A DNA stretch of 64,000 nt, taken from positions 1 through 64,000 of the forward strand of contig JAAXWG010000002.1 in NCBI GenBank assembly GCA_013350285.1, given 5' to 3'. The notes below the pieces were generated by a model, which was given only the letters and a program-made list of their open reading frames with translations, did no database searches and was not told the DNA's origin. This document shows, piece by piece, positions 1 through 22,323 of the stretch (positions within the stretch are counted from its first letter, which is position 1; every line of letters begins with the position of its first letter). This stretch comes from Candidatus Altimarinota bacterium. Lineage in GTDB: Bacteria; Patescibacteriota; Gracilibacteria; BD1-5; UBA6164. A program made the translations under genes and the position numbers.

Positions 1-126
1 TAAAAAAACTTTCTTATAGATACTTTTTGTTTACTTTGATATCTATGAGTACCAAGATAAACTATGATAGTAGAAATATCTGATTAGCCTCCTAAGATGT
101 GGGTTCAAATCCCACTAGCTCCACCA
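1..126 (+). ncRNA. ssrA: tmRNA (ssrA), 3' part only
   Basis: This is the 3' tail of transfer-messenger RNA, which rescues stalled ribosomes; the 5' half and most or all of the tag reading frame lie before the window. A T-arm is visible (GTGGG, loop TTCAAAT, CCCAC, 99-115), followed by the 3' acceptor strand TAGCTCC, discriminator A and encoded CCA ending at 126. No anticodon or D arm precedes it in tRNA spacing, and the AGCTCCACCA ending is typical of tmRNA rather than most tRNAs. The large serine recombinase on the other strand ends inside this gene, which suggests ssrA is the island integration site. A tRNA with a long variable region is the main alternative. Confidence 0.72.
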
Positions 127-3853: not shown

Positions 3854-4993
3854 TTATTTAAAATATTTAAAAAGTGCTTTTGCTACAGCTTTTGCTAATA
3901 ATGGGGGAACTGCATTTCCAGTTTGAACTCTTCATTGAACTATTCATCACATTACCTCAAAATTATCTGGAAAACTTTGTAGTCTACATCTCTCTCTTAT
4001 AGTTAATCATCTATTATCTGATGGATGTCAAAACTGAAATTGTGGTCTAATTCATCAAGAAACTTGAGTGGGGCTTAATATATCCCAAGATAACCTAATT
4101 CTTTGTTTATATTTTTCATAGATAGGTTCTCAAGGTATAGTATTTTTTATTTTATCAATTGTATCTTGAGGGTGATTTGGAGCTTTATGATTAAGTAATA
4201 TATTTCAATTATTTCTCATTGTTTTTTGATAATCAGAAAAGGCTTCTTTATTATATTTCATTTTTTCAGTTCCTGGTTCTAATTCAGGTAAATCTCAAAT
4301 TGCATTTTTTATATTGACATATTCTTTATCTGTTCATGGTCAATGAGTTTTTATTATATCATCAAAGTTAAATTCTTCTCATAATTCTTTATCAACTCAA
4401 ATAAAAATTAGTCTATTTCTTTTTTGAGGGACTCAGTAATCTGGTGCATAAAGCATCTTATGAACAACTTTATAATTTCATATGCTTTCAATTGATTTTG
4501 ATATATCATCTACAAATTTTCAATTTGCGGTACTCTTCATTCATGAAACATTTTCTAATACTACTATTTTTGGTGATAGTTGTTTAATTAGCTTTACAAA
4601 CTCTAAATAAAGAAAATTTCTTTTATCTAACTCATTTCTTTTTTTGTTATTCAATGAAAATCATTGACAAGGAACTCATCAAATTAAAACATCGATATTT
4701 TTTACTCAAGTAATTTTTTTGATATCCAAGGAGTTAACTTTTCTTATATCTCATAAGATAGAATATGAATTAGGATGATTCTTTTTAAATGTATCTATTG
4801 CTGGTTTTAATATATCAATTCATAATCATATTTCATATCAAGCCATTTCAAATCATAATGAAGTTCATCAACATCAACAAAAAGCTTCAAATACAATTGG
4901 TTTTTTTCAAGATATTTTTCATTTTTTAATTATAGGCTCTTCTTTATGGTAATAAGCACTTTCTTCTACCTCATTTTCAGATTTTTTAGTCAT
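3854..4993 (-). CDS. DNA (cytosine-5) methyltransferase
   Basis: A 379-residue C5 methyltransferase that would protect host DNA at its recognition site using S-adenosylmethionine. The motifs are in canonical order: F-E-A-F-C-G-C-G-G-T-S-L-G-F (motif I), G-G-V-P-C-Q-G-F-S with the catalytic Cys (motif IV), V-V-L-E-N-V (motif VI), P-Q-K-R-N-R-L-I-F-I-G (motif VIII) and G-N-A-V-P-P (motif X). Several motif glycines are TGA, which strongly supports code 25. It follows a 66-residue helix-turn-helix gene by 5 bases and precedes the candidate restriction enzyme by 7, forming a compact type II operon. The target-recognition region lies between motifs VIII and IX; its site cannot be read from sequence. 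Confidence 0.95.
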
Positions 4994-5304: not shown

Positions 5305-6066
5305 TTATTCATCATCATTATTAAGTTTTGTTAATTCTTTTACTTTGTATGTTTTAGTTTTATTTTTATATATTTTTGATGTTATTTCTGCATGAGCAAA
5401 TTTTTGTTCTAAATCTACATATTTTGTATTTGATGAATCAAAATCTAAGTTTCATTCAATCATATAAGCTTCTCATTTTTTCTTTTTAATTTTGATTTCA
5501 GAATAATTTGGATCGTAAACCTTATCAATAAAACTTCATATATGATTTTTAATATTTTCATTTAAGGCTATGTCATTAAATCTAAAAGCTATAAATCAAC
5601 TATTGTATCATCAAGAATTAAAAAGTAAATTAAATAAAGTATTTGTTATTATTTCTACATTTCAATTATAATAAACCAATACTAAGTCGATTTTTTCAAA
5701 TAAACAAGCTGAAAAATATAATTCTTTTATGTGTTCTTGTTGTTTTAATGTTTTTGCTATTTTTATAAAAATTTCTTCATTTACCAATTCATAAAGCTTA
5801 TAAAACATTAAAAAGTAAAATCAACTTATATATCAAACAGTAAAAGTTCAATCTTTATTATCTTCATAAAATCATCAAGTTCTTAAGCATACAATAAGAA
5901 ATTTTTTTCTATCAAATCAATATTCTTCTAAATTTATTATAAATTTCTTATCAGAGTTAATTTCCATCAACCTTAATATAAGATTGTAATTTTTTTTATT
6001 TTTTTCTATATAATCCATCAATTTTACTTGTTCTGGAATATTGTATGATTTTTGCTCTGTTATCAT
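5305..6066 (-). CDS. Hypothetical protein in island
   Basis: A 253-residue protein of unknown family. It begins M-I-T-E-Q-K-S-Y-N-I-P-E-Q and has no signal peptide. It is rich in Tyr, Phe, Lys and Glu, with predicted helices and strands and a Lys-rich segment I-K-I-K-K-K-K-G near residue 200. It uses TGA for glycine. It lies between the left inverted arm (outer end 6092) and the restriction-modification regulator, in the same direction as both. A role in defence or its control is possible by position only. Confidence 0.65.
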
Positions 6067-6091
6067 ATTTTATAATAATTATGTTTTATTG

Positions 6092-6191
6092 TGTCCAAAA
6101 ATTAGTTGATTTTTGAACTTTATTTTTCTAAAATTATTATATGAATTTTAAGGGATTTTTCAACTAGGTTTTTTCATAGTTTTTTTGGACA
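6092..6191. repeat. Imperfect palindrome at outer end of left arm (res-like site)
   Basis: The 100 bp begin with TGTCCAAAAATTAGTTGA and end with a TTTTTGGACA copy, with TCAACTA as a further inverted match. It adjoins the 3' end of the resolvase-type recombinase. The mirrored copy is at 18648-18747. A recombination site is inferred from the symmetry and position. Confidence 0.5.
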
Positions 6192-6197
6192 AAAACT

Positions 6198-6788
6198 TTA
6201 CACTTGATTTAACTTATAAGAGTTATATTTATTATAAACATTAGATTTTTTTAGCTTCATTTTTTCTGCAATATCTCTAAAAGTCATTCAGCTTTCTTTT
6301 AATTTTACAATCTTTAAAATATCTGTATCAACTTTAGGTCTTCATAAAGTCTTTCATTTTACTCTTGCTTTATGTATTCAAGCTCTAACTCTTTCTTGTA
6401 TTATTGATTTTTCAAATTCTGAAAATGCTGAAATCATTGTAAATAAAACTTTACCAACTGGAGTAGATGTATCGATATTTTCGTTATATGAAATAAAATC
6501 AATTCATAAGTTATTGAATAACTCTAAAGAATTTATTAAATGTCTAGTTGAACGGCTAAATCTATCAAATCTAAAAACTAAAACTCAATCTATTTTTCTT
6601 TTTTGAGCATCTTCAATAAGCTTGTCTAATTCAGGTCTACTTTCCTTTCATCAAGATATTTTATCAACATATTCGTTATAGATAAAAAATCATCTTGCTT
6701 TTGCATATTCTCTTAATGGAATTAACTGAGTATCTAAATCTTGCTTGTCGGTTGTTGAAGTCCTTCAATATATAGCTATTCTTTTCAT
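6198..6788 (-). CDS. Serine recombinase, resolvase/invertase type (left copy)
   Basis: A 196-residue small serine recombinase, the usual length for resolvases and invertases. The catalytic N-terminus reads R-I-A-I-Y-G-R-T-S-T-T-D-K-Q with Ser near residue 11. F-R-F-D-R-F-S-R-S follows, then the E-helix region I-S-A-F-S-E-F-E-K. The C-terminal helix-turn-helix reads G-R-P-K-V-D, then G-M-T-F-R-D-I-A-E-K-M. Glycines in these motifs are TGA. It ends 7 bases from the res-like palindrome. A near-identical copy lies in the other arm (18051-18641). It could resolve co-integrates, invert DNA between the arms or mobilise an arm. Confidence 0.92.
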
Positions 6789-6924
6789 AAGTAAATATTA
6801 AAATATAATATCTAATTATTATAACAATTTTTGTTTTAAATACAAGTAATAATGGCTTGAAATAAAGAAAAAGCAAAGTTTTTAATTTTGCTTTTTCTTG
6901 TAATATTTATATGTTACTAAGTTT

Positions 6925-7815
6925 TTAATTTTCGTATATTTCACAATTTATTTTATAAGCATTTTTATCTTCAAAATCATAAGTTACAAAACATACGAAA
7001 TTTGTTCTAATCATTGCTCAAAATCAATTTTGAGAATCAACATAAGATTCAAATTTATGTCTTTCTGCTGACGGAATATATTTTGCATAAGAACAAGATT
7101 GAAATTTTGCTGTACTTGGAGCTTTTAATTTTCTTTCTATTTCTAATTGAGAATATGAACAAGTTTCAACAAGTCTATCTTTTTCTAAAAACTCTCTTTT
7201 TTCTTTTTTATCAGCAAGTTCTTTTTGTAATATTTTTTCATCTTGTATTCTTTTTTCTTCAGCAATTTTTTCATTATTTATTTTTTCTAAATATTCTTTT
7301 GTAACTCTTTTAATTATATTTTTATATAAATCTGTTTCATCTCAAATTATACTTATATTATTTTCTCATAATTTTAAATCAATTGAATAATCAAAATGAT
7401 TATTTTTTAATGGTATTTCATTTCAATTTATTCTAAGTACTTTAATATTTTCTACTGTTCAACTTAATGATAACTTATCTTCAACTATAATAGCTCAACT
7501 TGAAATTTTAGGTATCATATCAAGTTTTAAACTTGGAGAAGGAAAAAATATTGAAATTCAAATGGAAAAAACTATAAATATCAAAAATAATCATCATAAA
7601 GGCTTTATAACTTTTTTTGATATAAAACTAGCATCTTCTTTATTTTGAAGCTTAAAAGCTAAAATTACATCAATTAACCACCAGATTCAATATCATCAAA
7701 CAGTAATAAGTTTTAATAATCAAAGTATGTATTTTCATTGATAAAATTTATCTAATCAAAATAATCATCAAAAAAGAGAAAAGTAAAAAAGAGTTCTTGG
7801 GTTTATATTTTTCAT
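6925..7815 (-). CDS. TM2-domain membrane protein (left copy)
   Basis: A 296-residue protein. The N-terminus holds a TM2 domain: F-G-G-Y-F-G-L-D-K-F-Y-Q-G-K, then G-G-Y-G-I-W-W-L-I-D, giving two membrane helices joined by a short turn. A further hydrophobic helix lies near residues 85-105. Then come a beta-rich segment with L-S-L-S-G-T-V and a strongly charged coiled coil of about 45 residues. The C-terminal domain contains L-K-A-P-S-T-A-K-F-Q-S, a motif of a small secreted domain. Glycines are often TGA. The second copy is at 17024-17914. Its function in a mobile arm is unknown. Confidence 0.8.
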
Positions 7816-7900
7816 AATGAAAAAAGAGTAACAAAATAAAATTTTTATTACTCTTTAATTTGGATTTTATAATTGAGAGTAATAATTCTAAATATTGTTA

Positions 7901-8000
7901 CCACACAAATAACCCTTAAGTATCCATTAAAGATAGATGAGGTGAATTACTACTCTCTTCTTATATTTAATGGAAGAATTTTTAAAAGTTATTTGTGTGG
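7901..8000. repeat. 100-bp palindrome in left arm
   Basis: CCACACAAATAAC at one end is the exact complement of GTTATTTGTGTGG at the other, and TCCATTAAA pairs with TTTAATGGA inside, leaving a loop of about 25 bases. It lies upstream of the TM2 gene and downstream of the DUF488 gene. The same structure is at 16839-16938. It may be a structured 5' leader, an operator or a cut site. Confidence 0.7.
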
Positions 8001-8035
8001 TGGATTTATACTATTTATTTTTTATAAAAAGTAAA

Positions 8036-8069
8036 GAAAAAAGCTTGATATATTTTAATAAATCAAGCT
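8036..8069 (-). terminator. Terminator of left DUF488 gene
   Basis: AGCTTGAT pairs with ATCAAGCT across a 12-base AT loop, and the minus strand continues into a T run. It lies 26 bases beyond the stop of the DUF488 gene. Confidence 0.65.
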
Positions 8070-8094
8070 CTTGTAGTTGCTAAAAATAGCATTT

Positions 8095-8469
8095 TTATAA
8101 ATGAATAACCTTAAATCATCTTATTTCTAATTCTGGTGTTATCTTATAAAATCTGTGACATTTTTTATAGTCTTTTTCCGAACAAAAAAAGACCACAATT
8201 TGGTCTTTTGCAAGATTAGACAATTTTTCAATTCAATACATAAAACTTTCATAAGAAATATCGTCATCCATTCATCAAAGAGTATCTCACATAAAAACAT
8301 ATTTACTTCAAAATAATTCTTGAAGTCTATTTTTATTATATTGAGGAACAAAACGAGAATAGGGTGAAGAACGAACATCAACTAAATAAGTAAATTCTAC
8401 TGAATTTATTTCAAATAAAAATTCTTGAATAGTTCTCGTAGAGTGTCAAATACTATATATTACTTTCAT
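8095..8469 (-). CDS. DUF488 family protein (left copy)
   Basis: A 124-residue DUF488 protein. The family signature is clear: S-I-G-H-S-T at the N-terminus, L-V-D-V-R-S-S-P-Y-S-R-F near residue 35, G-D-T-L-G-G in the middle, and F-F-C-S-E-K-D with C-H-R near the C-terminus. The conserved glycines are TGA. The length is full for the family. The biochemical function of DUF488 is not established; conserved Cys, His and Arg residues suggest an enzyme. It is transcribed separately from the TM2 gene, with its own terminator. The second copy is at 16370-16744. Confidence 0.85.
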
Positions 8470-8558
8470 TTTGGCTTTGTTAAGAGATAAATAAGTGATT
8501 TCATTATACTTATTTTATCTCAAAAGCAAAATGTTTTTTGGCTTAAAATCTGGGTTAT

Positions 8559-10757
8559 TTAATCAGTTTTTCATAATAATTCTTTATCTATCAATCATAA
8601 AATATATGTAATTAAACTGTTAATTCATCAATTAAAAGTAATTAAATCATTATTTTTTTTATAAATAAAAAAATCTATATCTTTATCTATATCACTTTCT
8701 TTATGATTATAAATTGCTCTTTTTTTTGAAATATAAAACAATAAATGAATATGATTTAAATCAAAATTTGCTATATGCTTCCTTAATGATTCCTTTCATT
8801 TATCTATTTCTTGATTATTTTTATTTATTTGTTTTATAGTAATATATCACTCTTCATTACCTCCATTTATTTTGATATCTATATTTTTTTTATCAATAAT
8901 ATTAAAAAGAATAGTTAATAATATATTTAATATGGAGTACAAATCTGCAATAAAAGATGGGTGTTTTAAATAAAAATTTGGGGAAATATTTTTTATAATC
9001 AACATATCGTCCATTATATTATTTAATTTTAATTTTAATTTTGAAATTAAATCCGTTTTATTTTTTTCTAGATAAATATTTATATTTTCGTAATTTATAT
9101 TTATTCAGAAAAGTGAAAAAAACTTAATTCAAATAATATTTTCTTTAAACTTAGATATGTTTTTATGTGTGTAAATTAAATCATACAATCATACTAAACC
9201 ATTATCTTTTAAAACTAAGTCCAATGGTTTAGTTTTACTATTTAAAAAAGATCTAATAATTTTATTATTATTTCATTTTATTAAATCTATAATATATTTT
9301 TTAGTATTCTTATATTCTAAATCATAATATTTTGAATCTAAATCAATATAAAACTTTACTAATATTGAATCTGTTATGTAATAATGATACTTCTTAAAAA
9401 TTTTTTGTAAAAATAAATTTTCAAATGATTTATTATACTTTTCTTGAAAATAATCTTCCATTATTTTTACTAAATATACAAAATTACTAGGGGAGATAAC
9501 TAACAACAAATAATTTTTTTTTATTTTTTCGTGTTGTTTACTTCAATCTATATCTTCAAATAATATTTTAAAAAGATTTAATGCAAATGATTTTTGAACT
9601 TGTTTTTTTGCATTTTTTAAATTATGAATCCATTTAAAATATCTTTTCAATCATTTTATATCAATAATAGAAATATCTTTTTTTAAATATTCTAAAAAAA
9701 CATTTTTTAATTTAGTTAATTCTAAAGTATCTTTATTTTTAATCTTCTCAAAATCAATTTCATTATATCTTTTATAATTTTCTGATAATGAAACTAAACT
9801 AGTCTTTTCTAAACTTAATGGTAAATTATTTTCTTGATATAAAAATTTTACTTTAGAATTAAAGATACTGTCTAAATTATCATTATTTGTAAAAAATATA
9901 AAATCATCATTATAACTAATATAATCAAGTCAAAATATTTCAGAAGCTCAATTTCTTTGCTTATATCAAGTGTAGTCTTTATCAATAAAAAAAATTAGCC
10001 ATAAAAATAAATTAGCTAAAATATCAGAAGCAATTACTCACTGAGGCAATCACGATTTATTATATCAATTTACCTTATATAAAATATTTCAAAAAATGTA
10101 TAAAAAATTATCTAAATTTTCAATTCAATATTTATTAAAAAAATATTTTAATTTTCATATTAAAATTTCATGGTTTATATTATCATAGAATCATTTTATA
10201 TCAGTTTCAATATAGTATTTATATTTATCTAATAACTCAGCCTTTAAATCTTCAAATTTTATCCAATTTGAGTCATAATGTTGGTATTTTAAATTTAAAA
10301 TATTAAAATCAGAATCTACATCGTAGCTTATACTTGAAAAATAACCAAAAAATTTTCAATCAATTAAAAAATTAGTTAAATTATGTTTATGAATTAAATG
10401 AAGTATAAATTTAAAAATTTTAGTTACATAAATTTCATATAGTAAAACATTATACAAATTTGTAATCCTAAATTTTCTTTCAGAAAAATTTAAGTTAGAT
10501 TTAACATCATTTATTTCATATAAATAATCTGTATTACAATATTCAATTGCTTGTATAAAATTTTTTACTCATTCATCGTCTTTTAAAATTTCATCATTAT
10601 TTAATATATGATAAAGTCTTTTAAAAAAATGATCATACACTAAATTTCAAATATTGTTTTTTCTAGAAAAGTAATAATATTTATCATCTCACTCAAAACT
10701 ATATTTAAAAAGGACATCATTTAAATCAGATAATGTAATTTTATTATCTATATTCAT
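8559..10757 (-). CDS. Abi-type reverse transcriptase with C-terminal HEPN-like motif
   Basis: A 732-residue protein. The RT fingers and palm occupy roughly residues 180-320: Y-I-E-T-D-I-K-G-F-Y-D-N-I-N-H (first catalytic Asp), G-L-P-Q-G-V-I-A-S-D-I-L-A-N-L and Y-N-D-D-F-I-F-F (YxDD, with Asn at x). About 400 helical, Lys-rich residues follow. Near the end is K-K-R-A-I-Y-N-H, an R-x4-H pattern as in HEPN nucleases; AbiA-type abortive-infection RTs combine these two parts. No group II maturase domain or diversity-generating repeat is seen. It is expressed divergently from hamA from a duplicated promoter and ends just inside the left arm. A phage-defence role is inferred. Confidence 0.8.
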
Positions 10758-10774
10758 AATATTTATTTATAACT

Positions 10775-10890
10775 AAACATATAAACCTTACAATTACTAT
10801 TATTATAATTATTTTCTTTAAAATATCAATTTACTTTTTATATATGAAAAACTATAAATACATATCTTAGATTTTAAATTTTCTATCAAG
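10775..10890 (-). promoter_or_regulatory. Duplicated promoter region driving the reverse transcriptase
   Basis: On the minus strand this reads TTGATA (10824-10829), a 16-base spacer and TATAAT (10802-10807), 44 bases before the RT start codon. The same stretch, inverted, lies before hamA (about 12625-12752), identical over most of its length. Identity through the -35 and -10 suggests shared control of both systems. Confidence 0.65.
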
Positions 10891-10944
10891 TTTTTATTGA
10901 TTTATTATTTTATAATTAAAATAAGTAGAATAATAAAGATTTTT

Positions 10945-11460
10945 ACTTTTTTAAAAGTGTGGCATAAAAATACACCATTTTTAATACTTTTTACATAAAA
11001 TAACTTTACACTTTATAGCTTCTCTAAACGAAGCTAAATTACTTTTTTATTACTTTGTCTAAAATGCGACACTTTTTAGCTTTTTTTTGAAAAAATGATA
11101 CAAAATGCGACACTTTTAGGTTTTTCTAAAAGTGTAACATAAAAAGTTACATTTTTTAGTACTTTTTACATAAAATAACTTTACAATATGTAATAAGTCT
11201 AAATTTAGCAAACTTATTATTCTTATATTATATATAAAAGTTTACACTTTTGGACTTTTTTGAAAAAAATGATGCAAAATGTTACACTTTTGGAATTTTC
11301 TAAAAGTGTAAAGTAAAAACCTTACACTTTTAAGGTATTTCAAATAAAATAACTTTACAATATGTGATAAGTCTAAATTTAACAGAATAATTATTATTAT
11401 AAATTTCAAATAGTTTACACTTTGTGATTTTTCTAAAATTATCTTATTAAAATCTTACAT
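10945..11460. repeat. Cluster of AAGTGTAA-type repeats, left group
   Basis: Several copies of a short motif related to AAAAGTGTAA, in both orientations, some as hairpins. The best hairpin, AAAAGTGTAA with TTACACTTTT, is at 11301-11333. Longer blocks also repeat: ATAAAATAACTTTACA occurs three times (about 10998, 11173 and 11347). No gene is present in this stretch. The same motif recurs at 12400-12560 and beside the recombinase ends (about 6190 and 18635). It may bind a protein or mark sites of past rearrangement. Confidence 0.7.
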
Positions 11461-11551
11461 TATTTTATTATTTATATTATTACTATAATATCATTGTTCA
11501 ATTATGGTTAGCTTATATAAAATAACATTAGTTTTAGCTTGTATACTTAAT

Positions 11552-11795
11552 TTATAATTTAATTCAATAAGCTTCTTTTTGCTCTAAAGTTAATCTATTT
11601 GAAATTATTTCTTTTCATCACATCTCAGTAATATAAAATGCAATAAGTCCTTTAGCGAATCTAATAGGGCTTTTTTTAATGAATCAAAAAATGTGTTCGA
11701 AATTTTTCTTATCTGTCCACCAATCTATCCAATCTGGAAGTAATTCTGAATGAAATAAGTTCAGATATACATTTAGAATTTGAGATAGAATTTAA
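11552..11795 (-). pseudogene. Gene remnant without start codon
   Basis: An open frame of about 80 codons on the minus strand reads H-S-E-L-L-P-D-W-I-D-W-W-T-D-K, then S-P-I-R-F-A-K-G-L-I-A-F-Y, and ends K-L-TAA. It has three TGA glycines and a protein-like composition but no ATG. An in-frame TAA precedes it, so its 5' end seems lost, probably where the divergent gene at 11815 now begins. I do not recognise the family. Confidence 0.4.
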
Positions 11796-11814
11796 CTTTA
11801 AGAAGTAAAATTTT

Positions 11815-12120
11815 ATGACTAATAAGCAAAAAGATATTCATATTGAGATTACTAGATGAATATGACTAGATTTTTGAATTGATGAAAATTTTATAAAATC
11901 TAAGAAGAAAAAAATATTTTTAGATTTAACTGAAAATGAAGTTTGAAATGAAACTTTTGTAGAAAATTCTTCAATTATTGATTTTAATAAATCCTTTAAA
12001 ATAGCTAATTGTAGAAATAAAAGCACTAGCACTGTTATTTCAAATATGGAAATTGAAATACAATGAATTCCTCTGAAAGATGAAAAGGACTTTTGAAGAA
12101 GATTAAATCATTTTTTTTAA
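11815..12120 (+). CDS. Hypothetical small protein between reverse transcriptase and Hachiman
   Basis: A 101-residue protein beginning M-T-N-K-Q-K-D-I-H-I-E-I-T and ending R-L-N-H-F-F. It has five TGA glycines and no signal peptide or membrane helix. Composition is charged and beta-rich, with no motif I can name. It is flanked by repeat clusters and gene remnants on both sides, so it may be cargo, a small regulator or itself in decay. It could be part of the neighbouring defence locus, but it is not a standard Hachiman component. Confidence 0.5.
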
Positions 12121-12219
12121 TAGAGCTAGAAAGAAGTAATTATAATATATATAATAAGAAAGAGATATAAAATATTGTTTTTATGTCTCTTTTTGTTTTT
12201 GAAAAATTATATTCCTACC

Positions 12220-12352
12220 AGAAGTAAAAGAACCTATTCATACTTTATGAATTAAGATAAGCTTTGAAGATAAGTCAGTTAAAGTAATTCCTATGTTTGA
12301 TAAAGAAGTAAAAGAATACTTAGAGTTAGATGAAGTAACTGTCATAAATTAA
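12220..12352 (+). pseudogene. Gene remnant (C-terminal fragment)
   Basis: An open frame without a usable start reads L-P-E-V-K-E-P-I-H-T-L-G-I-K-I-S, then V-I-P-M-F-D-K-E-V-K-E-Y-L and ends V-T-V-I-N-TAA. One glycine is TGA. It resembles the end of a lost protein; the family is not recognised. Confidence 0.3.
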
Positions 12353-12397
12353 AGCAAATAGCAATTATTCCTAGATTTTTTCTAGTATTTTAGTCAT

Positions 12398-12565
12398 TCC
12401 AAAAGTGTAACATTTTTGTTGATTTTTTACTAAAAAAGCCTAAAAGTGTAACATTTTACATAAGCTACAGAAAAAGTAATTTTGCTCCGTTTAGAGAAAC
12501 TATAAAGTGTAAAGTTTTTTTTCATAGAAAACCCCAAAAATGTTGCATTTTCTCGCTACACTTTT
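12398..12565. repeat. Cluster of AAGTGTAA-type repeats, right group
   Basis: Copies of AAAAGTGTAACATTTT and relatives occur at about 12401, 12443, 12506 and 12554 in both orientations. The stretch around GTTTAGAGAAACTATAAAG is an inverted counterpart of 11005-11045 in the left group. The whole intergenic region is thus partly mirrored around about 11,765. Confidence 0.65.
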
Positions 12566-12696
12566 GAAAAATAAAAAAATAGAAATTATTTAGCTTTTAA
12601 AATCATTATTTATAAATAATCAAAATTTGATAGAAAAATTAAGTTTTAAAATATGTCTTTATAGTTTTTCATATATAAATAATACTTTAAAGTAAA

Positions 12697-12724
12697 TTGA
12701 TATTTTAAAGAAAATAATTATAAT
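12697..12724 (+). promoter_or_regulatory. Promoter of the Hachiman operon
   Basis: TTGATA, a 16-base spacer and TATAAT lie 40 bases before the hamA start. This is the inverted duplicate of the reverse transcriptase promoter at 10802-10829, with an extra insertion further upstream. Confidence 0.65.
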
Positions 12725-12764
12725 AATAGTAATTGTAAAGTTTATATGTTTAATAAAATTGTAA

Positions 12765-13697
12765 ATGGATTCATCATTTAGTTCAGATAGTAATGAGTTT
12801 TTATCTATCTTTAAAGAGATTGATAATATAGCATTAGACAAAAATTGAGAAAAATCTTTAAAAATTTTTATGCTTCAAATAGATTCAAAAGACTTTGATT
12901 ATTTAAGTTTAAAAGAAAAGCTATTAGACCCTATTCTTTGATATTCATTATCAAGAAAAACACTTAGTGAATATAAATGAGTATCTGTATCAGCGGTAAA
13001 AAAAGCTACATCTAAGATAAGAGATTATCTTTCAAATACTTGAGAGCTATGAGAATATTTACTTTATTGTTTTCTTGAAAGTGACTTACAAGCCCCTAAA
13101 ATATTAAGTAAACTAGAACTTAAAACATCTCCTAACGATTATGTAAAATGAGCTGATTGAGTTCATTATAAAAAAATATGAGATGATTATGTTTTATTAT
13201 TCGGAGAATCAAAAACAATTATAGAATTAAAAAGATGAATAGATAGTGCATTACTATCAATATATGATTTTAAAAATTGAATAAAAAGAAATAAAGACTG
13301 AAAAGAGACAGATAGAAATACTTCAAAATTTTGAATTTGATATGAAAAAGCTTTAATCTCAGATAATTTATGAAAAGAAACTTTTACAGAGGAAGAAGAA
13401 AAATTTTTTAAGTCTTTAATTTACCCTTCAAGAGAAAATAGTTGCAATGTAAATACTGGTTTTGCAATTTTTATTTGATTTGAGATGGATATAAGTAAAT
13501 TTCAAGATTTATCAAATGTAGAATTTTCAAATAAATTAGAAGAAGTATTAAAAGAAAAAATAAACAAAAAGAAAGATTATATTTTAGAAGAAATAAAGAC
13601 AAAAAATTTACAATGACATAATCTTTATTTTTATTTTTTACCATTTTCAAGATTAAATGAAACTCGTGAAGAAATTACAAAACATATAACAACTTAA
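12765..13697 (+). CDS. hamA: HamA-like nuclease of the Hachiman defence system (DUF1837)
   Basis: A 310-residue protein matching the DUF1837/HamA pattern: an N-terminal accessory part, L-G-E-Y-L-L-Y, then S-P-N-D-Y-V-K-G-A-D-G-V-H followed by L-L-F-G-E-S-K. The Asp and the E-x-K of that stretch form the PD-(D/E)XK-type nuclease core. In characterised Hachiman systems HamA is held inactive by the HamB helicase and degrades DNA once HamB senses damaged or phage DNA. Of 18 glycines, 16 are TGA, one GGA and one GGT. hamB follows after 3 bases. Identification combines the motif and the helicase partner. Confidence 0.88.
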
Positions 13698-13700
13698 AAT

Positions 13701-16280
13701 ATGATTAAAGAATGGGCTAAACAAGTTATAGAAGATGAATATTTTTTAGAACTTTTTAAAAAAGCTGAAGAATACTCTATAAGTAAACTATTTTGAACTA
13801 ATAACATTGTATTTACAGAAAAAGAATACAATGATTTATTTCGTTTTTCAGATATTTTATCATTTTCAGATAAATCTGAAGATAAAAATTTATCTCTAAA
13901 AATTGTATCTTTACTATATGAAATAGAAGATTTTTTTAGTGCTTTTAAAATATATTCTGTATCTATTCTAACAAGATTATGAAACTTTCCATCAATAAAA
14001 TTTATTGATAATGAATGAACTATAGAAAAAGAAATCCCATTTGATATTTTTATAAGTAAAAAATTTAAAGAAGAAAACCAAGTTTCTCCATTTTGAGATA
14101 AAGTATTTACCGACTCTCAATATAAAATTTATAAAGAGTTATTAAATCATAATAATTTTAGCTTTTCTTGACCAACCTCACTTTGAAAATCATTTTTAAT
14201 AGAATCTTATATTTTTGAAATAGCTAAAGCAAAAAAAGAAAATATTGTTCTTATTGTTCCTACAAGAGCTTTAATAAATCAAGTATCTAATAAGTTGAAA
14301 ACAGAATTTAAAGATAGATTAGAAAAATATAAGATTTTAACTCACCCAGTAGTGCCAGATTTACTATACAGCAAAGAAAACAATTTTATTTTCATATTTA
14401 CACCAGAAAGATTTATAACATATCTATGAAATAAAAATAACCCTAAAATTTCTTATCTATTTGTTGATGAAGCACATAAAGTAATATCGGAAAATGATTC
14501 TCGTTCTCCTTTGTACTATCATGCACTTTATCAAGCACAAAAAAAATGAATAAACTTATTTTTTGCATCTCCAAATTTACCAAATCCAGATATATTTTTA
14601 AAAGTATTTTGAGCTAGTCCAGAAGATAATTTAACAGTTACTGAAACAACAGTAACTCAAAATAGATATTTTATAGACTTAGTACAAAGAAATATTACAT
14701 ATTATTCAGATTTATGAAATGAATATAATATTGAAAATAATAGTATATTTTTAAAAAGCACATTTGAGATAATTCGTGAGTTATGAAATAATACTAAAAA
14801 TATAATTTATTGTAATACAGTTCAAAATACTATAAATTATTCATTGAAATTTTCCAAACTTTTAAATGATGTTTCAGATGAAGAAAAACTAATTCAAATA
14901 AATAAACTTATAGATTTAATAAAAAAAGAATTACACGAATATTATTATTTAATTCCTTGTTTAAAAAAGTGAATTTGATTTCATTTTTGAGCAATTCCTC
15001 AAAGAATTAGAAATATGATAGAACAATTATTTCAAGATAAAGCTATAAGTTATATTTTTACAACTTCAACATTATTAGAATGAATAAATCTTCCAGCAAA
15101 AAACATTTTTATTTTAAATAATAAAATTTGATTAAATAAATTTAAAAGTATAGATTTTTGGAATTTAGCTTGAAGAGCTTGAAGGTTAACAAAAGAGTTA
15201 TCTTGAAATATAATTTGTATTAGAGAAGATATAAATGAATGGGTTAAAGATTATACTAGTAAAGCTGTAGATCATGATATTATAAAAAATAAAAAAATAG
15301 AAAAATTAGAATCACAAGTTATAAAGTGATGAAATAATTTTTATAAAAATATTAACAACTCGATTTCTTGAGAAAATTTTACAAAAAAAGACTTTTCTTC
15401 TACAGAAAAAGAAATATGGGACCACTATTGAAATATATTACTATATCATCATAAAAAGTGATTTGATAGTAATTTAATTACAAACTATACTAAAAAACTA
15501 AAAGATAATTCTAAACTTGAAAAAATAGCGAAAGAAGTATCGGTTCCAGATGATTTACTCTTAATATCTTCAAATATAAAAGTAAAATATCAAAATAATA
15601 TTTATAAAAATAATGAACAAACCTACGAAGCATTTCCAAATGAAATAAGTTATGATAATTGTAAAATGTTACTAAAAAAATTATATAAAGATTATAACTT
15701 TAAAGAAGAAGAAAGTTGTTGAAAAAAAGCAATGTTTCCAGATTATATTTCTCACGACAAGAAAATTGAATATTATGCTACAATTATGGAAAAATGGTTA
15801 AATTCAGCATCATTAAAAAAAATTATATCTAGTACCATTAAATATAAGCAAGAAAAAGATTGACTTATTTATATAAACCAAATATTTGAAACTTTTGATA
15901 AGAATAACCCTATTCATATAAATCAAATAATAAATGATTTAATGAATGATATTGACTATGTTTTGAGATATAAATTAGAAAAATATTTTAATAATTATTA
16001 TCTTATTTTAGTTGAAAAATTATGAGAAAATAATGCTGGAAGTAATTGGGCTGAATTTTTAGAATATGGTACAAATAATAAGAAAATGATTGAATTACAG
16101 AATTTAGGAATAGAAAGACATTTGGCTAAATATTTATTAGATAATTTTCAAGATTATATTAAATATGATGATTTTGAAAAATTAACATCATTTGAATATG
16201 AAAAAATTTTAGAAAAAATAAATATAAAAGATATTGAACATGAAGAATTCCAAAATTTCATAAATAGCTTCATAGATTAG
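13701..16280 (+). CDS. hamB: HamB-like SF2 helicase of the Hachiman defence system
   Basis: An 859-residue superfamily 2 helicase. Walker A is F-S-G-P-T-S-L-G-K-S near residue 150, the DExH box is L-F-V-D-E-A-H-K, and motif VI is N-L-A-G-R-A-G-R-L-T. Motifs S-T-L-L-E-G-I-N-L-P-A-K and H-F-G-A-I-P fit the Ski2/Brr2-like helicase core seen in HamB. The C-terminal 300 residues are helical. Many glycines, including those in the ATP-binding loop, are TGA, so a standard-code search would see only fragments. It forms a two-gene operon with hamA and ends 14 bases before the right inverted arm. Confidence 0.9.
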
Positions 16281-16369
16281 TTTTTATCTTAAATAAGCCA
16301 AAAAACATTTTGTTTTTGAGATTAAATAAGTATAATAAAATCACTTATTTATCTCTTATCAAAGCCAAA

Positions 16370-16744
16370 ATGAAAGTAATTTATAGTATAGGTCATTCAA
16401 CAAGAACAATTGAAGAATTTTTATTTGAAATAAATTCTGTAGAATTTGCTTATTTAATCGATGTTCGTTCAAAGCCTTACTCTCGTTTTGTTCCTCAATA
16501 TAATAAAAATAGACTTCAAGAATTATTTTGAAGTAAATATATTTTTATGTGAGATACTCTTTGATGAATGGATGATGATATAACTTTTGATATTTTTATG
16601 TATTGAATTGAAAAATTGTCTAATATTGCAAAAGACCATATTGTGGTCTTTTTTTGTTCTGAAAAAGATTATAAAAAATGCCACAGATTTTATAAGATAA
16701 CACCAGAATTAGAAATAAGATGATTTAAGGTCATTCATTTATAA
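16370..16744 (+). CDS. DUF488 family protein (right copy)
   Basis: A 124-residue copy of the left-arm protein with the same signatures: S-I-G-H-S-T, L-I-D-V-R-S-K-P-Y-S-R-F, L-G-G-M-D-D-D and C-H-R. It differs at scattered positions, for example S-K-P instead of S-S-P and I-T-F-D-I-F-M instead of I-S-Y-E-S-F-M. Both copies remain open, which argues against simple decay. It starts 90 bases after hamB in the same direction, so read-through is possible. Confidence 0.85.
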
Positions 16745-16769
16745 AAATGCTATTTTTAGCAACTATAAG

Positions 16770-16800
16770 AGCTTGATTTATTAAAATATATCAAGTTTTT
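16770..16800 (+). terminator. Terminator of right DUF488 gene
   Basis: AGCTTGAT pairs with ATCAAGTT across an AT-rich loop and is followed by T residues; counterpart of the left-arm terminator. Confidence 0.6.
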
Positions 16801-16838
16801 TTCTTTACTTTTTATAAAAAATAAATAGTATAAATCTA

Positions 16839-16938
16839 CCACACAAATAACTTTTAAAAATTTTTCCATTAAATATAAGAAGAGAGTAGTAATTCACCTC
16901 ATCTATCTTTAATGGATACTTAAGGGTTATTTGTGTGG
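16839..16938. repeat. 100-bp palindrome in right arm
   Basis: Ends CCACACAAATAAC and GTTATTTGTGTGG are exact complements, with TCCATTAAA/TTTAATGGA inside. Same position relative to the genes as the left-arm copy at 7901-8000. Confidence 0.7.
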
Positions 16939-17023
16939 TAACAATATTTAGAATTATTACTCTCAATTATAAAATCCAAATTAAAGAGTAATAAAAATTT
17001 TATTTTGTTACTCTTTTTTCATT

Positions 17024-17914
17024 ATGAAAAATATAAACCCAAGAACTCTTTTTTACTTTTCTCTTTTTTGATGATTATTTTGATTAGATAAATTTTATCA
17101 ATGAAAATACATACTTTGATTATTAAAACTTATTACTGTTTGATGATATTGAATCTGGTGGTTAATTGATGTAATTTTAGCTTTTAAGCTTCAAAATAAA
17201 GAAGATGCTAGTTTTATATCAAAAAAAGTTATAAAGCCTTTATGATGATTATTTTTGATATTTATAGTTTTTTCCATTTGAATTTCAATATTTTTTCCTT
17301 CTCCAAGTTTAAAACTTGATATGATACCTAAAATTTCAAGTTGAGCTATTATAGTTGAAGATAAGTTATCATTAAGTTGAACAGTAGAAAATATTAAAGT
17401 ACTTAGAATAAATTGAAATGAAATACCATTAAAAAATAATCATTTTGATTATTCAATTGATTTAAAATTATGAGAAAATAATATAAGTATAATTTGAGAT
17501 GAAACAGATTTATATAAAAATATGATTAAAAGAGTTACAAAAGAAGAGTTAGAAAAAATAAATAATGAAAAAATTGCTGAAGAAAAAAGAATACAAGATG
17601 AAAAATTATTACAAAAAGAACTTGCTGAAAAGAAAGAAAAAAGAGAATTTTTAGAAAAAGATAGGCTTGTTGAAAGTTGTTCATATTCTCAATTAGAAAT
17701 AAAAGACAAATTAAAAGCTCCAAGTACAGCAAAATTTCAATCTTGTTCTTATGCAAAATATATTCCGTCAACAGAAAGGCATAAATTTGAATCTTATGTA
17801 GATTCTCAAAATTGATTTTGAACAATGATTAGAACAAACTTTGTATGTTTTGTAACTTATGATTTTGAAGATAAAAATGCTTATAAAATAAATTGTGAAA
17901 TATACGAAAATTAA
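17024..17914 (+). CDS. TM2-domain membrane protein (right copy)
   Basis: A 296-residue copy of the left-arm protein: TM2 domain at residues 8-50, a further membrane helix near 85-105, beta-rich segment, coiled coil and C-terminal L-K-A-P-S-T-A-K-F-Q-S domain. Substitutions include E-L-E-K for Y-L-E-K in the coiled coil and K-D-K-L for E-R-K-L before the last domain. The lack of frameshifts suggests both copies are maintained or recently duplicated. Confidence 0.8.
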
Positions 17915-18050
17915 AATTTTAATAACATATAAATATTACAATAAAAAGCAAAATTAAAAACTTTGCTTTTTATTTATTTTAAGCCGTTTTTACTTGTATT
18001 TAAAACAAAAATTGTTATAATAAATAGATATTATATTTTAATATTTACTT

Positions 18051-18641
18051 ATGAAAAAGATAGCAATTTACTGAAGGACTTCAACAGTCGACAAGCAGGA
18101 TTTAGATACTCAGTTAATTCCATTAAGAGAATTTGCAAAAGCAAGATGATTTTTTATTTATAATGAATATGTTGATAAAATCTCTTGATGAAAAGAAAAT
18201 AGACCAGAGTTAGATAAACTTATGGAAGATGCTCAAAAAAGAAAAATAGACTGAGTTTTAGTTTTTAGATTTGATAGATTCAGTCGTTCGACTAAACATT
18301 TAATAAATACACTTGAATTATTCAATAACTTATGAATTGACTTTATTTCATATAATGAAAATATCGATACATCTACTCCAGTTGGTAAAGTTTTATTTAC
18401 AATGATTTCAGCATTTTCAGAATTTGAAAAATCAATTATACAAGAAAGAGTTAGAGCTTGAATACATAAAGCAAGAATAAAATGAAAAACTTTATGAAGA
18501 CCTAAAGTTGATACAGATATTTTAAAGATTGTAAAATTAAAAGAAAGCTGAATGACTTTTAGAGATATAGCAGAAAAAATGAAGCTAAAAAAATCTAATG
18601 TTTATAATAAATACAACTCATACAAGTTAAATCAAGTGTAA
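18051..18641 (+). CDS. Serine recombinase, resolvase/invertase type (right copy)
   Basis: A 196-residue copy of the left-arm recombinase with intact R-T-S-T nucleophile region, F-R-F-D-R-F-S-R-S motif and C-terminal helix-turn-helix. Conserved glycines are TGA. It reads outward toward the res-like palindrome at 18648-18747. Two active copies in opposite orientation could in principle invert the 7.75-kb segment between the arms or act together in transposition. Confidence 0.92.
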
Positions 18642-18647
18642 AGTTTT

Positions 18648-18747
18648 TGTCCAAAAAAACTATGAAAAACCCGAGTTGAAAATTCCTTTAAAATTCATAT
18701 AATAATTTTAGAAAAATAAAGTTCATAAATCAACTAATTTTTGGACA
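18648..18747. repeat. Imperfect palindrome at outer end of right arm (res-like site)
   Basis: TGTCCAAAAAAACTATG at one end and ATCAACTAATTTTTGGACA at the other form the mirrored version of 6092-6191. It lies between the arm recombinase and the start of the second large serine recombinase. Confidence 0.5.
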
Positions 18748-18774
18748 AATAAAATATATTGAAATGTAAATAAT

Positions 18775-20556
18775 ATGGAAAATGATATAAATGATTTTGA
18801 TGATATTTTCTTAGAAGAAGATAATATTATATTAAAGAAAAAATTAAAAGTTGCTTGTTATATAAGAGTTAGTACCGTAGAGCAAACAGAAATGTATTGA
18901 GATGAGTTGCAATTAGAGAGAATAAAAAAATATTTAGAAGCTAGAAAAGATGATTTAGAATTTGCTTGAGAAGAGTTAAATTTTGATGATCCATTTGTTT
19001 TTTATGATTGATGAGTTAGTTGAGCAGATAAAATAGAATCAAGAGAAGAGTTAACAAGGTTATTTCACACATTAGACTATTCTTGAAAAGAAAATAAACC
19101 CTTTGATATTGTTATAGTTTTTAAAATAGATAGATTTGCAAGAGATTTAAAAGTTTTACTTGAAATATCAGATAGATTAAAAGAATTTTGAGTTTGATTT
19201 GTTTCAACACAAGAATCAATTGATACATCAACTCCTTTTTGAAATGCTATGTTATGAATTTTATGAGTTTTTGCAGAATTAGAAAGAGAAATGATTAAAG
19301 AAAGAACTATGCTTTGAATGATTGAAAGTTTTAAAGATTGAAAAGCAAAAAAAGTTCCATATTGATATAGAAAAGATGCAAATTGAAGACCTATGATATA
19401 TGAAAGTGAGGCAATAATTATTAGAGAAATATTTGATAAAATAATTCTGTGAAGTACTATACCAGAAATTATTAGAGATTTAGTAAAAAGAAAAATACCA
19501 ATTCCAACGGCTAGTGGTTCTGATACTTCTCATTTATCAAGAATGAAAGACTCATATAAGTGGGAAGATAAAACTATTAGATGAATATTAGAAAATGAAT
19601 TTTATATTTGAAAACTTTATTATAATAAATCAAGAAAAATAAAAGATGAAAAATGAAAGAAAAAAACAGTTCATTTAGATAAGTCAAAATGGAAACTTTC
19701 ACCAGTATTTCATAGTCCTTTAATTTTAGAAGATGATTTTAAAAAAGTTCAAGAGATGATTTGACTAAAAAAATGAAATTTTCATAGGTCAGAGAAAAAT
19801 TATATTTTAAGTTGATTATTAAAATGTTGATATTGTGAACAACATAGACCATGAGGTTCAATTTGATGGAGTTGAACTTGATGAGCTGGTAAATATTCTT
19901 ATTATCATTGTAATTGAAAGAAATCAAGAAATTCTATAAATGGGTATTTATGTAAATGTTCACAATTAGATAAAAATGAACTTGAAGAATTAGTAATAAA
20001 TGAAATAAAATCAATATTTAATAATTTAGATGTACTTAATTCTTATATAAATAAAAAAAATAATTTACCAAATATATTAAAAAGAAAAGAAAATGATTTA
20101 AGTAAGTTAAACGATGAAGTAAAAAAGGCAGAAAATATTTTGGAAAATATTAAAATTTGAGCTTTTACCTTATGACTTTATAGCTGAGAAGAATTTAAAC
20201 TAAAATATGAAGACCAAAAGAATAAAGTAGATGAAGTTAAAAATAAATTAAGAGTTTTAGAGAAAAGTTTTGATAAAATTTTCAATTCTGATAAATATCA
20301 AAAATGATTAAAAATTTTAAAAACTATTGTTCAAGAAGATTTAAATATTTTGTTTAAAGATAAAGAAAAAATTTGAAACTTTTTAGAATTTATAATCGAA
20401 GATATTGTGTTATATTCAAGAGATAGGCTAGATACTGATGTAATCAGATGACAAAAGCCAGACTGACAACAAATCCCTTATAAAATGAAAATAAAATTTA
20501 AATTACCTCAAGAATTTTTAAAAGAATACATTAAGTTTAGTATTAAATGAGTTTAA
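18775..20556 (+). CDS. Large serine recombinase with zinc ribbon
   Basis: A 593-residue large serine recombinase. The catalytic domain has A-C-Y-I-R-V-S-T-V-E-Q with Ser33, F-K-I-D-R-F-A-R-D and F-A-E-L-E-R-E-M-I. The recombinase domain follows (K-K-V-P-Y-G-Y-R, then W-E-D-K-T-I-R-G-I-L-E-N). The zinc ribbon reads L-K-C-G-Y-C, then Y-Y-H-C-N, with C-K-C beyond, and a coiled-coil C-terminus ends the protein. TGA glycines are abundant. It differs from the recombinase at the left end, so the island has two integrase-type enzymes. It starts 28 bases outside the right arm. It could be the integrase of a second, nested element. Confidence 0.92.
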
Positions 20557-20558
20557 AT

Positions 20559-21617
20559 ATGAAAAAATGAGAAATTGATTTTTGATTACTAGATAAAAAA
20601 GTTGAGGATTTTATCAATTCTAATTTTGATATTAAAGATATTGAAAAAAACTTTAAAAAGAGTATTAAAAAGAAAGACTTAATAGACATAATTGAAACTT
20701 TAGAAAAAAATAGACTTTATAATTGAATAGAAGAAGATTGATTTTCTAAAAGATTAGATATTAGATGGTGAAAGTTATTCAATAAAATTAGTTATATTAT
20801 AGATTTTTCATTTTATAGTATTTATGAATGACAACAATTTATTGATAGGAGTAATGTTAGAAATCATGTTTTACTTAAACTACATTCAAAACAAATTTTA
20901 CTTGCAAAAGAAATACTTATTTTATTGAGAAATTGATATTGAGAATGAGCAAATGCTAGGTGGAGAAGTTTATATGAAAATGTAGTTATTACTTTATTTA
21001 TATCTAATAATTGAAATGAATTAGCTAAAAGATTTTTAGAACATAAAAATATTTTTAATTATAAAGAATCTTTAAAATATAAAGATAGTTATAAAAAGTT
21101 AAAACACAGATGATATTGAAAAGATAATTTTAAAGAATTAGAAGAAGAAAAAGAAAGATTATTAAAGAAATATTGAAAAAGCTTTTTTTGAGATTATTGA
21201 TGGATTACAGATGATATTTTAAAAAATAAAAACTTTACAGAAATTGAAAAAATTGTAGATATGGCACATTTTAAACCTTATTTCAGTTTATCATCTAGGT
21301 CTATTCACTCTTCATCAAAGTCGTTTGATAATTTATGAAAAAGAAATGATGATTTAAATTTAATTTGACCTAGTAATATATGACTAATAGACCCAATTCA
21401 AAATACTACTATGTTTTTAATGAAATGAGCTACTTTTATTTTAATAGATTTTATTAAACAATTAGACGATAAAGATATTAAAAATAAAATAATTTTATTG
21501 TATTTTACAAAAATCTTAATTTGACTTGATATAAGTACTTGAAAAGAAGCAATAAAAGTTCAAGATGAAATTGATAGAGATGAAATACTTCTTAATGAAT
21601 TTGAAAATGAAAAATAA
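20559..21617 (+). CDS. DUF5677-like protein
   Basis: A 352-residue protein, helical, starting 2 bases after the recombinase stop. The segment G-A-N-A-R-W-R-S-L-Y-E-N-V near residue 130 and the later S-I-H-S-S-S resemble DUF5677, a HEPN-like family often found in accessory and defence loci. No membrane helix is certain. Gly is mostly TGA. It overlaps the next gene by 11 bases, so the two are likely co-expressed. The family assignment comes from the arginine/tryptophan motif and is moderate. Confidence 0.6.
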
Positions 21618-22323
21618 TTATTTAGATTCTAATATAATTTTTGAAAATAAATTTTCTCAAGAAATTCTTATATTAGCACAAAATATTGTGATAAAAGATA
21701 AGTTAGATTTAAAAGATAATTTCATAATGGAAGTATTCAAGTATTTTTGTGAAATTAGTGAAAAATTTGATGATATAAATTATTCATATTTACATATATT
21801 GAATTATCCAAATAATAAAACATATAGAAAAATTTTTCCAATTAAAAAATATAATTCGTATCACACAGAAGTATATCTTATTAAAATTATAGCTTTATTT
21901 GATAGATTTTTACATCTTATAAATTTATTATATGATTTAAAATTAAATTGATTAAATTTAAAAATAGATAACATTAAGAAATCTAATAAAATTGGAGACA
22001 ATATTTTATTAACTTTAGAAAATTTTAATAATAAAATCACAGAATTAAGAAAATCACAAAATTATATAAAACACGAATGAACTTTAGATATAGTAGAATT
22101 ACAAAAAATAAGTACCTATGAATTTTTATTAAGTCATGGTAAGGATTTAGATGAAGAAACAAAAAGAGCTATGAATTTATTTATTAAATTAGAATTTAAA
22201 AAATATAAAAGAGGTCATAGAGATAAACTTTTAGCAAATACTAAGTGAATAGCTGAATTTATAAATAATATTTTATGAGAATTATGTCCAATTTTTACAA
22301 ATAAAATAAATGAATTTAAATAA
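21607..22323 (+). CDS. HEPN-like hypothetical protein (Cthe_2314-like)
   Basis: A 238-residue helical protein whose ATG overlaps the end of the DUF5677-like gene. The segment R-K-S-Q-N-Y-I-K-H-E-G has an R-x(n)-H spacing like HEPN-type domains, and I-K-I-I-A-L-F-D-R-F-L-H-L-I fits the Cthe_2314-like HEPN group. I chose the inner ATG because upstream in-frame codons lie within the previous gene. It could form a two-protein toxin or defence module with that gene. The link is inferred from helical content and a short motif. Confidence 0.5.

What the first reader, a model, noticed from the sequence alone, without database searches (positions are those of the whole stretch)
6092..18747. Composite-transposon-like unit: 2.45-kb inverted arms with serine recombinase, TM2 and DUF488 genes flanking a reverse transcriptase and Hachiman
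Two inverted arms each encode a complete resolvase-type recombinase, a TM2 membrane protein and a DUF488 protein plus a 100-bp palindrome. Between them lie two divergent defence systems. I know of no described mobile element with this gene set. It could move defence genes or invert them.
Basis: partly seen in the sequence, partly recalled or inferred. Interest (0 to 1): 0.92.

Follow-up and report, generated by a model that had tools for sequence, protein, structure and literature searches.

The report
Mirrored defence-gene slots with resolvase
In a Gracilibacteria-type bacterium that reads TGA as glycine, two anti-phage defence systems sit head to head in two inverted copies of one cargo slot (shared promoter region, cargo, then DUF488, TM2 and resolvase genes and a resolvase site) inside an integrase island; it is a duplicated piece of an ordinary kind of genomic island, not a composite transposon.

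Summary
Inverted arms 6085-8545 / 16294-18754 (2461 bp, 114 mismatches) each carry DUF488, TM2, a small serine recombinase and a palindrome, around an RT and Hachiman. (1) The mirror continues inward: both cargos start behind the same promoter region (10774-11438 / 12396-12752; nearest 64 bp 98% identical). (2) The outer ends are a res-type site, a 28-bp crossover palindrome plus an accessory half-site in about 100 bp. The same arrangement lies downstream of related recombinases elsewhere, including genomes with no DUF488 module. (3) Large serine integrases lie outside both arms; the left one abuts tmRNA. (4) Another genome (MAG_52) has one copy of the promoter-side region and arm, with no cargo, in a 5.2-kb integrase island at tRNA-Pro; a congener lacks that island. 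I read this as a defence-cargo slot of an integrase island, duplicated head to head. Cargo probably changes by homologous recombination between shared flanks; the recombinase probably resolves dimers and might invert 12.6 kb. 'Composite transposon' is not supported. Inversion and independent mobility are not shown, and a 660-bp identical tract in both arms is either gene conversion or assembly collapse. New variant of a known kind; moderate interest.

The parts
1..126 (+). 3' end of tmRNA (ssrA); contig C1 starts here and its first 127 bp equal the end of contig C4, which carries the rest of ssrA
   Evidence: Rfam RF00023 E 4.2e-13, cut 5'; 127-bp identical overlap; tmRNA on C4 end, L096 3607-4070
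115..1860 (-). large serine integrase LSR1, its 3' end overlapping ssrA
   Evidence: Resolvase + Recombinase domains; ~61% identical homologues next to tmRNA in G172 and G169, next to a tRNA in G200
3854..4993 (-). DNA cytosine methyltransferase (left flank of island)
   Evidence: TIGR00675 E 1.3e-58; PADLOC MTase_II E 2.2e-98
5305..6066 (-). 253-aa protein directly outside the left arm; a 29% homologue (263 aa) follows the recombinase in G197
   Evidence: C-terminal part shared with proteins next to LSR1 homologues in G200 and G172
6085..8545 (-). left arm: DUF488 - hairpin - TM2 - recombinase - res
   Evidence: 95% inverted copy of 16294-18754
6092..6191 (-). left res-type site: 28-bp crossover-like palindrome 6092-6119 plus accessory half-site 6180-6191
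   Evidence: half-site scan; only two such pairs in the window, none in 100 simulated sequences
6198..6788 (-). small serine recombinase, left copy
   Evidence: PF00239 E 4.5e-42; R-x-S and DRFxR motifs invariant in family alignment
6925..7815 (-). TM2 membrane protein, left copy
   Evidence: PF05154 E 1.4e-11
7316..7975 (-). 660-bp tract identical to 16864-17523 in the other arm
   Evidence: longest run in 5000 random placements of the mismatches 245 bp
7900..8001 (-). palindrome / hairpin between DUF488 and TM2
   Evidence: z -7.7; kept in G197 with a matching change on both sides of the inner stem
8095..8469 (-). DUF488 protein, left copy
   Evidence: PF04343 E 1.4e-13; PADLOC PDC-M45B E 3.6e-26
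8559..10757 (-). cargo 1: reverse transcriptase of the UG/DRT kind (732 aa)
   Evidence: PF00078 E 4.9e-13; PADLOC RT_UG21 E 3.3e-17
10774..11438 (-). promoter-side region of the left slot, with ~175-bp repeats and CACTTTT-N10-AAAAGTG palindromes; promoter-like TTGATA-N16-TATAAT at 10829-10802
11815..12120 (+). 101-aa ORF in the central spacer, no family match
12148..12752 (+). promoter-side region of the right slot; promoter-like TTGATA-N16-TATAAT at 12697-12724
   Evidence: 89% identical to G179 5065-5629; 78% to the left region; promoter scan
12765..13697 (+). cargo 2: HamA of Hachiman
   Evidence: PF08878 E 3.8e-47; PADLOC E 7.5e-94
13701..16280 (+). cargo 2: HamB of Hachiman
   Evidence: PADLOC HamB E 1.4e-292
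16294..18754 (+). right arm: DUF488 (16370-16744) - hairpin (16837-16939) - TM2 (17024-17914) - recombinase (18051-18641) - res
18648..18747 (+). right res-type site: accessory half-site 18648-18659, crossover-like palindrome 18720-18747; promoter-like TTGAAA-N16-TATAAT 18676-18703 between them
18775..20556 (+). large serine integrase LSR2
   Evidence: Resolvase, Recombinase, zinc-ribbon domains; 37% to the G179 integrase in the same position
20547..22323 (+). DUF5677 protein and HEPN-like protein, overlapping LSR2 and each other

Best explanation
This is a large-serine-integrase genomic island, probably anchored at ssrA on its left, in which one functional block is present twice, head to head. 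The block is a cargo slot: a promoter-side region with palindromic repeats, then exchangeable cargo, then DUF488, TM2, a small serine recombinase and its res-type site, with integrase-associated genes beyond. SHOWN: the anatomy; the second copy; the same promoter-like sequence in front of both cargos; the res-type site with family-conserved spacing; one relative with the same block, a different middle gene and no cargo, inside a tRNA-anchored integrase island absent from a congener. INFERRED: cargo is swapped by homologous recombination between the shared flanks; the small recombinase acts at res, mainly to resolve dimers of the circular or replicating island; with its sites inverted it may invert 12.6 kb. 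Such an inversion would exchange only the outer neighbours, because the cargo promoters and the predicted outward promoters lie within the inverted segment, so it would not by itself switch the defence genes. DUF488 and TM2 function is unassigned; a part in the island's upkeep or in defence is a guess.
For: Slot: G179 matches the window at 12148-12713 (89%) and then, 14 bp later, at 16288-16744 (89%), skipping Hachiman. Shared promoter: 98% over 64 bp, TTGATA-N16-TATAAT in both, 11/12. Variable genes upstream of DUF488: RT, Hachiman, none (G179), KAP NTPase/PifA-like (G197), AAA_13/PDC-S06 (G183). Integration: in G179 the block lies between tRNA-Pro and a gene adjoining that tRNA in G183, where only ~320 bp lie between the matched flanks; a sequence ATACGGGTAAAAAA recurs inverted near both ends. 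res: span 100 bp in both arms and G197, 99 bp in G008, 112 bp in G179, about 90 bp in a Microgenomates genome; in G008 the neighbours are type I R-M genes and in Microgenomates a tyrosine integrase, so the site goes with the small recombinase rather than with LSR2. LSR1 homologues sit at tmRNA in two more genera.
Against: Integration ends were worked out only for G179; the right end of the window's island was not found, and LSR2 here is followed by overlapping genes instead of an att site. In G197 and G183 the cargo lies in a different orientation and without a clearly homologous promoter region, so a strict promoter-cargo-arm slot rests on the two window copies and G179. Most homologues of the recombinase beyond about 58% identity lacked a recognisable TGTCC-type site in my scan. 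No recombination has been observed. The block is rare: DUF488 of this kind in 4 of 353 genomes of the class.
Confidence: 0.6

Rival explanations
1. Composite transposon: the arms are mobile units in their own right that together mobilise the RT and Hachiman genes.
For: Two near-identical inverted ends around cargo; the module is found in other genera.
Against: The enzyme is N-terminal catalytic domain plus C-terminal HTH, a resolvase/invertase layout, with a res-type site. Longest word shared by 30-bp outer flanks is 6 bp of A/T. In relatives the module is single and lies among conserved island genes; G179 homology continues past the arm end. No second place in the own genome.
Confidence: 0.05
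2. Invertible switch: the recombinase flips the 12.6 kb between the res sites to change which genes are expressed.
For: Sites are inverted and intact in both arms. The closest solved full-length relative is a DNA invertase, and PHROGs calls the protein a DNA invertase. The beta recombinase of pSM19035 is described as inverting DNA between inversely oriented six sites (title of a reference listed in PMC8493755).
Against: Predicted promoters of both cargos and the outward promoter in each arm are inside the segment and nearly identical on both sides, so no expression change is predicted. Single-copy relatives have nothing to invert.
Confidence: 0.12
3. Two separate islands, one brought by LSR1 at ssrA and one by LSR2, fused or inserted into one another; the head-to-head pair is a by-product with no function, kept similar by gene conversion.
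For: Different integrases and gene sets outside the two arms; promoter-side regions 78% identical versus arms 95%; one 660-bp identical tract inside arms otherwise about 6% diverged.
Against: No second set of integration ends was found around the right half. It differs from the best explanation in origin only.
Confidence: 0.2
4. Assembly artefact: one block with two cargo alleles in the population, or a collapsed repeat, laid out as an inverted pair.
For: A 660-bp exact repeat exceeds the 127-bp overlap seen between contigs, which suggests a short-read de Bruijn assembly; such a repeat would leave the orientation of the interior ambiguous.
Against: The arms differ at 114 positions with mostly silent changes in two genes and open reading frames kept; outer flanks differ and each has a counterpart in relatives; promoter-side regions are 22% diverged.
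Confidence: 0.08

Closest known systems
Genomic islands integrated by large serine recombinases at tRNA/tmRNA genes, carrying defence genes
   Same: Large serine integrases; LSR1 at the 3' end of ssrA; G179 island at the 3' end of tRNA-Pro with a congener lacking it; restriction-modification, Hachiman and RT cargo
   Different: Part of the island is duplicated head to head; a second, small serine recombinase with its own res-type site and DUF488 and TM2 genes forms a fixed back end of the cargo slot; TGA is read as glycine
Sin / beta-type and Tn3/gamma-delta resolvases with res (six) sites
   Same: Crossover-like 28-bp palindrome with TGTC-type half-sites plus an accessory site near the recombinase gene; span about 100 bp, between Sin res (86 bp) and Tn3 res (114 bp) as given in PMC2428073
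   Different: Site lies downstream of the gene; by sequence the protein is nearer Gin and gamma-delta than Sin, which was not among the PDB hits; activity untested
Composite transposons
   Same: Inverted near-identical ends around cargo
   Different: No transposase, no target duplication seen, ends not independently mobile in relatives
Hachiman and UG/DRT reverse transcriptases
   Same: HamA and HamB adjacent; RT matches DRT models
   Different: RT best model (UG21) is a partial match, so its class is open

Membership tests
Composite transposon | flanking copies encode a transposase | tested here: not met
   arms encode a resolvase/invertase-type small serine recombinase, TM2 and DUF488
Composite transposon | target-site duplication at the outer ends | tested here: not met
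   longest shared word of 30-bp flanks is 6 bp of A/T
Composite transposon | arm moves as an independent unit | tested here: not met
   own genome has only the two arms; relatives hold it inside larger islands
Serine resolvase with res site | N-terminal catalytic domain with the active-site serine and arginines, C-terminal HTH | tested here: met
   PF00239 over 4-146; R9, S11, R76 and R79 invariant in six relatives
Serine resolvase with res site | crossover palindrome plus accessory site at fixed spacing near the gene | tested here: met
   100-bp site in both arms and G197, 99 bp in G008, 112 bp in G179; none in 100 simulated sequences
Serine resolvase with res site | recombination between two sites | not testable with these tools
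   needs an in vitro or plasmid assay
DNA invertase (Hin/Gin type) | inversion changes expression of genes beside the segment | tested here: not met
   promoter-like sequences lie inside the segment and match on both sides; prediction only
IS607-type element | N-terminal DNA-binding domain before the catalytic domain | tested here: not met
   order is catalytic domain then HTH; IS607 model far below its cut-off
Large-serine-integrase island (relative G179) | integrase inside, ends at a tRNA 3' end, related genome without the insert | tested here: met
   tRNA-Pro at 4633-4709, integrase 7998-9941, G183 with ~320 bp between the matched flanks
Large-serine-integrase island (window) | both integration ends identified | tested here: inconclusive
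   left end at ssrA; right end not found
Hachiman | HamA and HamB genes adjacent | tested here: met
   12765-13697 and 13701-16280
DRT (defence reverse transcriptase) | RT domain with a match to a known UG class | tested here: inconclusive
   RT_UG21 best, E 3.3e-17 over residues 163-438; several UG classes match

The most novel reading that the evidence does not exclude
A dedicated exchange slot for defence systems: a conserved bracket (palindrome-array promoter region in front; DUF488, a variable gene, resolvase and res behind) that swaps whole defence operons, can be held twice in mirror image so that a cell keeps two systems at once, and in which the resolvase rearranges the pair.
Probability: 0.2. 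Interest if true: 0.75.

Novelty: new variant of a known kind. Interest (0 to 1): 0.5.

Why it matters
How defence systems are gained and replaced within islands is mostly inferred from comparisons of hotspots. Here one genome holds two cargo alleles of the same slot behind near-identical promoters, and a relative holds the slot empty, so the exchange points can be placed to within tens of bases. It also pairs a small recombinase with a testable 100-bp site in a lineage (Gracilibacteria-type, code 25) whose mobile elements are little described.

Tried and rejected
Composite transposon (no transposase, no target duplication). Independent movement of the arm (own genome has two copies only). The AAGTGTAA / CACTTTT-N10-AAAAGTG repeats as recombinase sites: they lack the paired TGTCC half-sites found at res, so left unexplained. 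Same module outside the family: none in viral contigs, none among 80 named genome loci holding related recombinases apart from G197 and G179 themselves, TM2 query alone found nothing in genome contigs. Exact res motif in viral contigs: none. Copies of the tmRNA 3' end marking the right island end: none in the window, and genes after ssrA in relatives did not match the window's right side. G179's presumed attP motif is absent from the first 26 kb of the window. Rfam: nothing in 5000-21000. A lax blastn scoring scheme gave meaningless AT-rich matches and was discarded (redone).
Full report
OBSERVATION. The inverted arms are real and as placed: 6085-8545 and 16294-18754, 2461 bp each, ungapped, 95% identical. 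Each codes, under table 25, for DUF488, TM2 and a small serine recombinase and has a 102-bp palindrome between the DUF488 and TM2 genes that folds far better than shuffles. Between the arms are a reverse transcriptase whose best PADLOC model is RT_UG21 and a clear Hachiman pair. Chance is not an option at this length.

The mirror does not stop at the arms. Inside the cargo genes, 10774-11117 and 12401-12752 are again inverted copies (78%), and the 64 bp nearest the cargo are 98% identical. Both carry the same promoter-like sequence, TTGATA-16-TATAAT, placed to read into the RT and HamA. So the unit that is present twice is: promoter-side region, cargo, DUF488, TM2, recombinase, outer site. The two cargos differ; everything around them is shared. 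The promoter-side regions hold diverged ~175-bp repeats and CACTTTT-N10-AAAAGTG palindromes; in a 14-genome scan these clustered only here and beside the same module in G197, with other hits scattered (one possible further pair in G197). Their role is unknown.

OUTER SITE. The arms end at a site with a 28-bp palindrome of TGTCC-type half-sites and a further half-site so that the whole spans 100 bp (6092-6191, 18648-18747). These were the only such pairs in the window, and 100 first-order Markov simulations of the window gave none. The half-site weights were built from these same sites, so the scan scores are descriptive; the TGTCC-pair count is the independent check. The same layout follows the recombinase in G197 (100 bp), G179 (112 bp, with an insertion), G008 (99 bp, another family, standard code) and a Microgenomates genome (about 90 bp). 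In G008 the neighbours are type I restriction-modification genes, and in Microgenomates a tyrosine integrase lies just upstream, so the site goes with the small recombinase. Size and build resemble resolvase res sites (Sin 86 bp, Tn3 114 bp; PMC2428073). More distant homologues did not show it. A promoter-like sequence for the outer gene lies inside the site.

RELATIVES. The DUF488 of this kind was found in 4 of 353 genomes of the class, all in one family. G179, a Candidatus Gracilibacteria MAG (contig JABWCI010000014.1), has one block: promoter-side region (89% to the window's right copy), then 14 bp later the DUF488 arm (89%), with no cargo; an HNH gene stands where TM2 is, followed by recombinase, site and a large serine integrase 37% identical to the window's LSR2. 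This block lies between tRNA-Pro and the next gene; in the congener G183 those flanks are ~320 bp apart. The ends carry an inverted ATACGGGTAAAAAA pair and ACCAT at the tRNA end, as expected of an integrase attachment site; this assignment is mine and untested. Two further congeners have other DNA of 3.5 and 12 kb at that place. G197 (UBA6489, contig DJMN01000031.1) has the complete arm at 69%, with a KAP-type ATPase upstream and a 263-aa relative of the window's 253-aa gene plus two large serine recombinases downstream. G183 has the DUF488 end with an AAA_13 gene (PDC-S06) nearby.

LEFT END. Window 1-126 is the 3' end of tmRNA. Large serine integrase LSR1 (115-1860) ends inside it, and its homologues sit at tmRNA in G172 and G169 and at a tRNA in G200. 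The left side is therefore an ssrA island. The right end was not found.

HISTORY OF THE ARMS. The 114 mismatches are not spread evenly: one 660-bp stretch (7316-7975 / 16864-17523) has none, while random placement never gave more than 245 bp in 5000 trials. Either a recent gene conversion or a collapse in assembly. The contig start shares exactly 127 bp with another contig, which suggests a short-read graph assembly; a 660-bp exact repeat could then leave the orientation of the interior undecided. The duplication itself is not in doubt, because the arms differ elsewhere and have different, meaningful flanks.

MECHANISM. Most likely the block is a cargo slot of an integrase island, and the window holds two slots head to head. 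Cargo can be exchanged by ordinary recombination in the shared flanks. The recombinase and its site are most simply a dimer-resolution system of the element. With inverted sites, a beta-like enzyme might invert 12.6 kb (literature title only), but since the predicted promoters lie within the segment and match on both sides, inversion would not switch the cargo. None of these reactions has been observed.

NOVELTY. Integrase islands with defence genes, resolvases with res sites, Hachiman and RT systems are all known kinds. I found no paper describing DUF488 with TM2 or this module; the library holds open-licence papers only. New here are the fixed DUF488-variable gene-resolvase-res back end and the mirrored pair with one promoter sequence for two defence systems.

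Noticed in passing
window 1-127: First 127 bp equal the last 127 bp of contig C4, which carries the rest of tmRNA, so C4 and C1 are probably joined here; many relatives also have contig ends at ssrA.
   Followed up: partly
window 10899-11438 and L068 4532-5597: Diverged repeats of about 170-240 bp with palindromes whose outer bases change on both sides; found beside the DUF488 module in two genera, function unknown.
   Followed up: partly
window 7900-8001, 16837-16939; L068 about 8720-8850: Strong hairpin between DUF488 and TM2, kept in G197 with one compensatory change; possible RNA or DNA element.
   Followed up: partly
window 22689-25415: SF1 helicase with DUF2726, 86-87% identical at DNA level in two other genera while a core gene (peptidase U32) is about 75% identical; likely moved horizontally.
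   Followed up: no
L067 1244-1858: A code-25 viral contig carries a recombinase 65% identical to the arm enzyme just before phage structural genes, without the TGTCC-type site after it.
   Followed up: partly
L082 (G181) about 5000-17600: A different insert of about 12 kb at the same tRNA-Gly/Ile/Pro cluster where G179 has its island: an insertion hotspot.
   Followed up: no
L146 255-7295: Related recombinase and res-type site directly followed by type I restriction-modification genes and a KilA-N gene in another family.
   Followed up: partly
L069 6094-6894: HNH endonuclease-like gene in reverse orientation occupies the place of TM2 in the G179 copy; G183 seems to have the same gene.
   Followed up: partly
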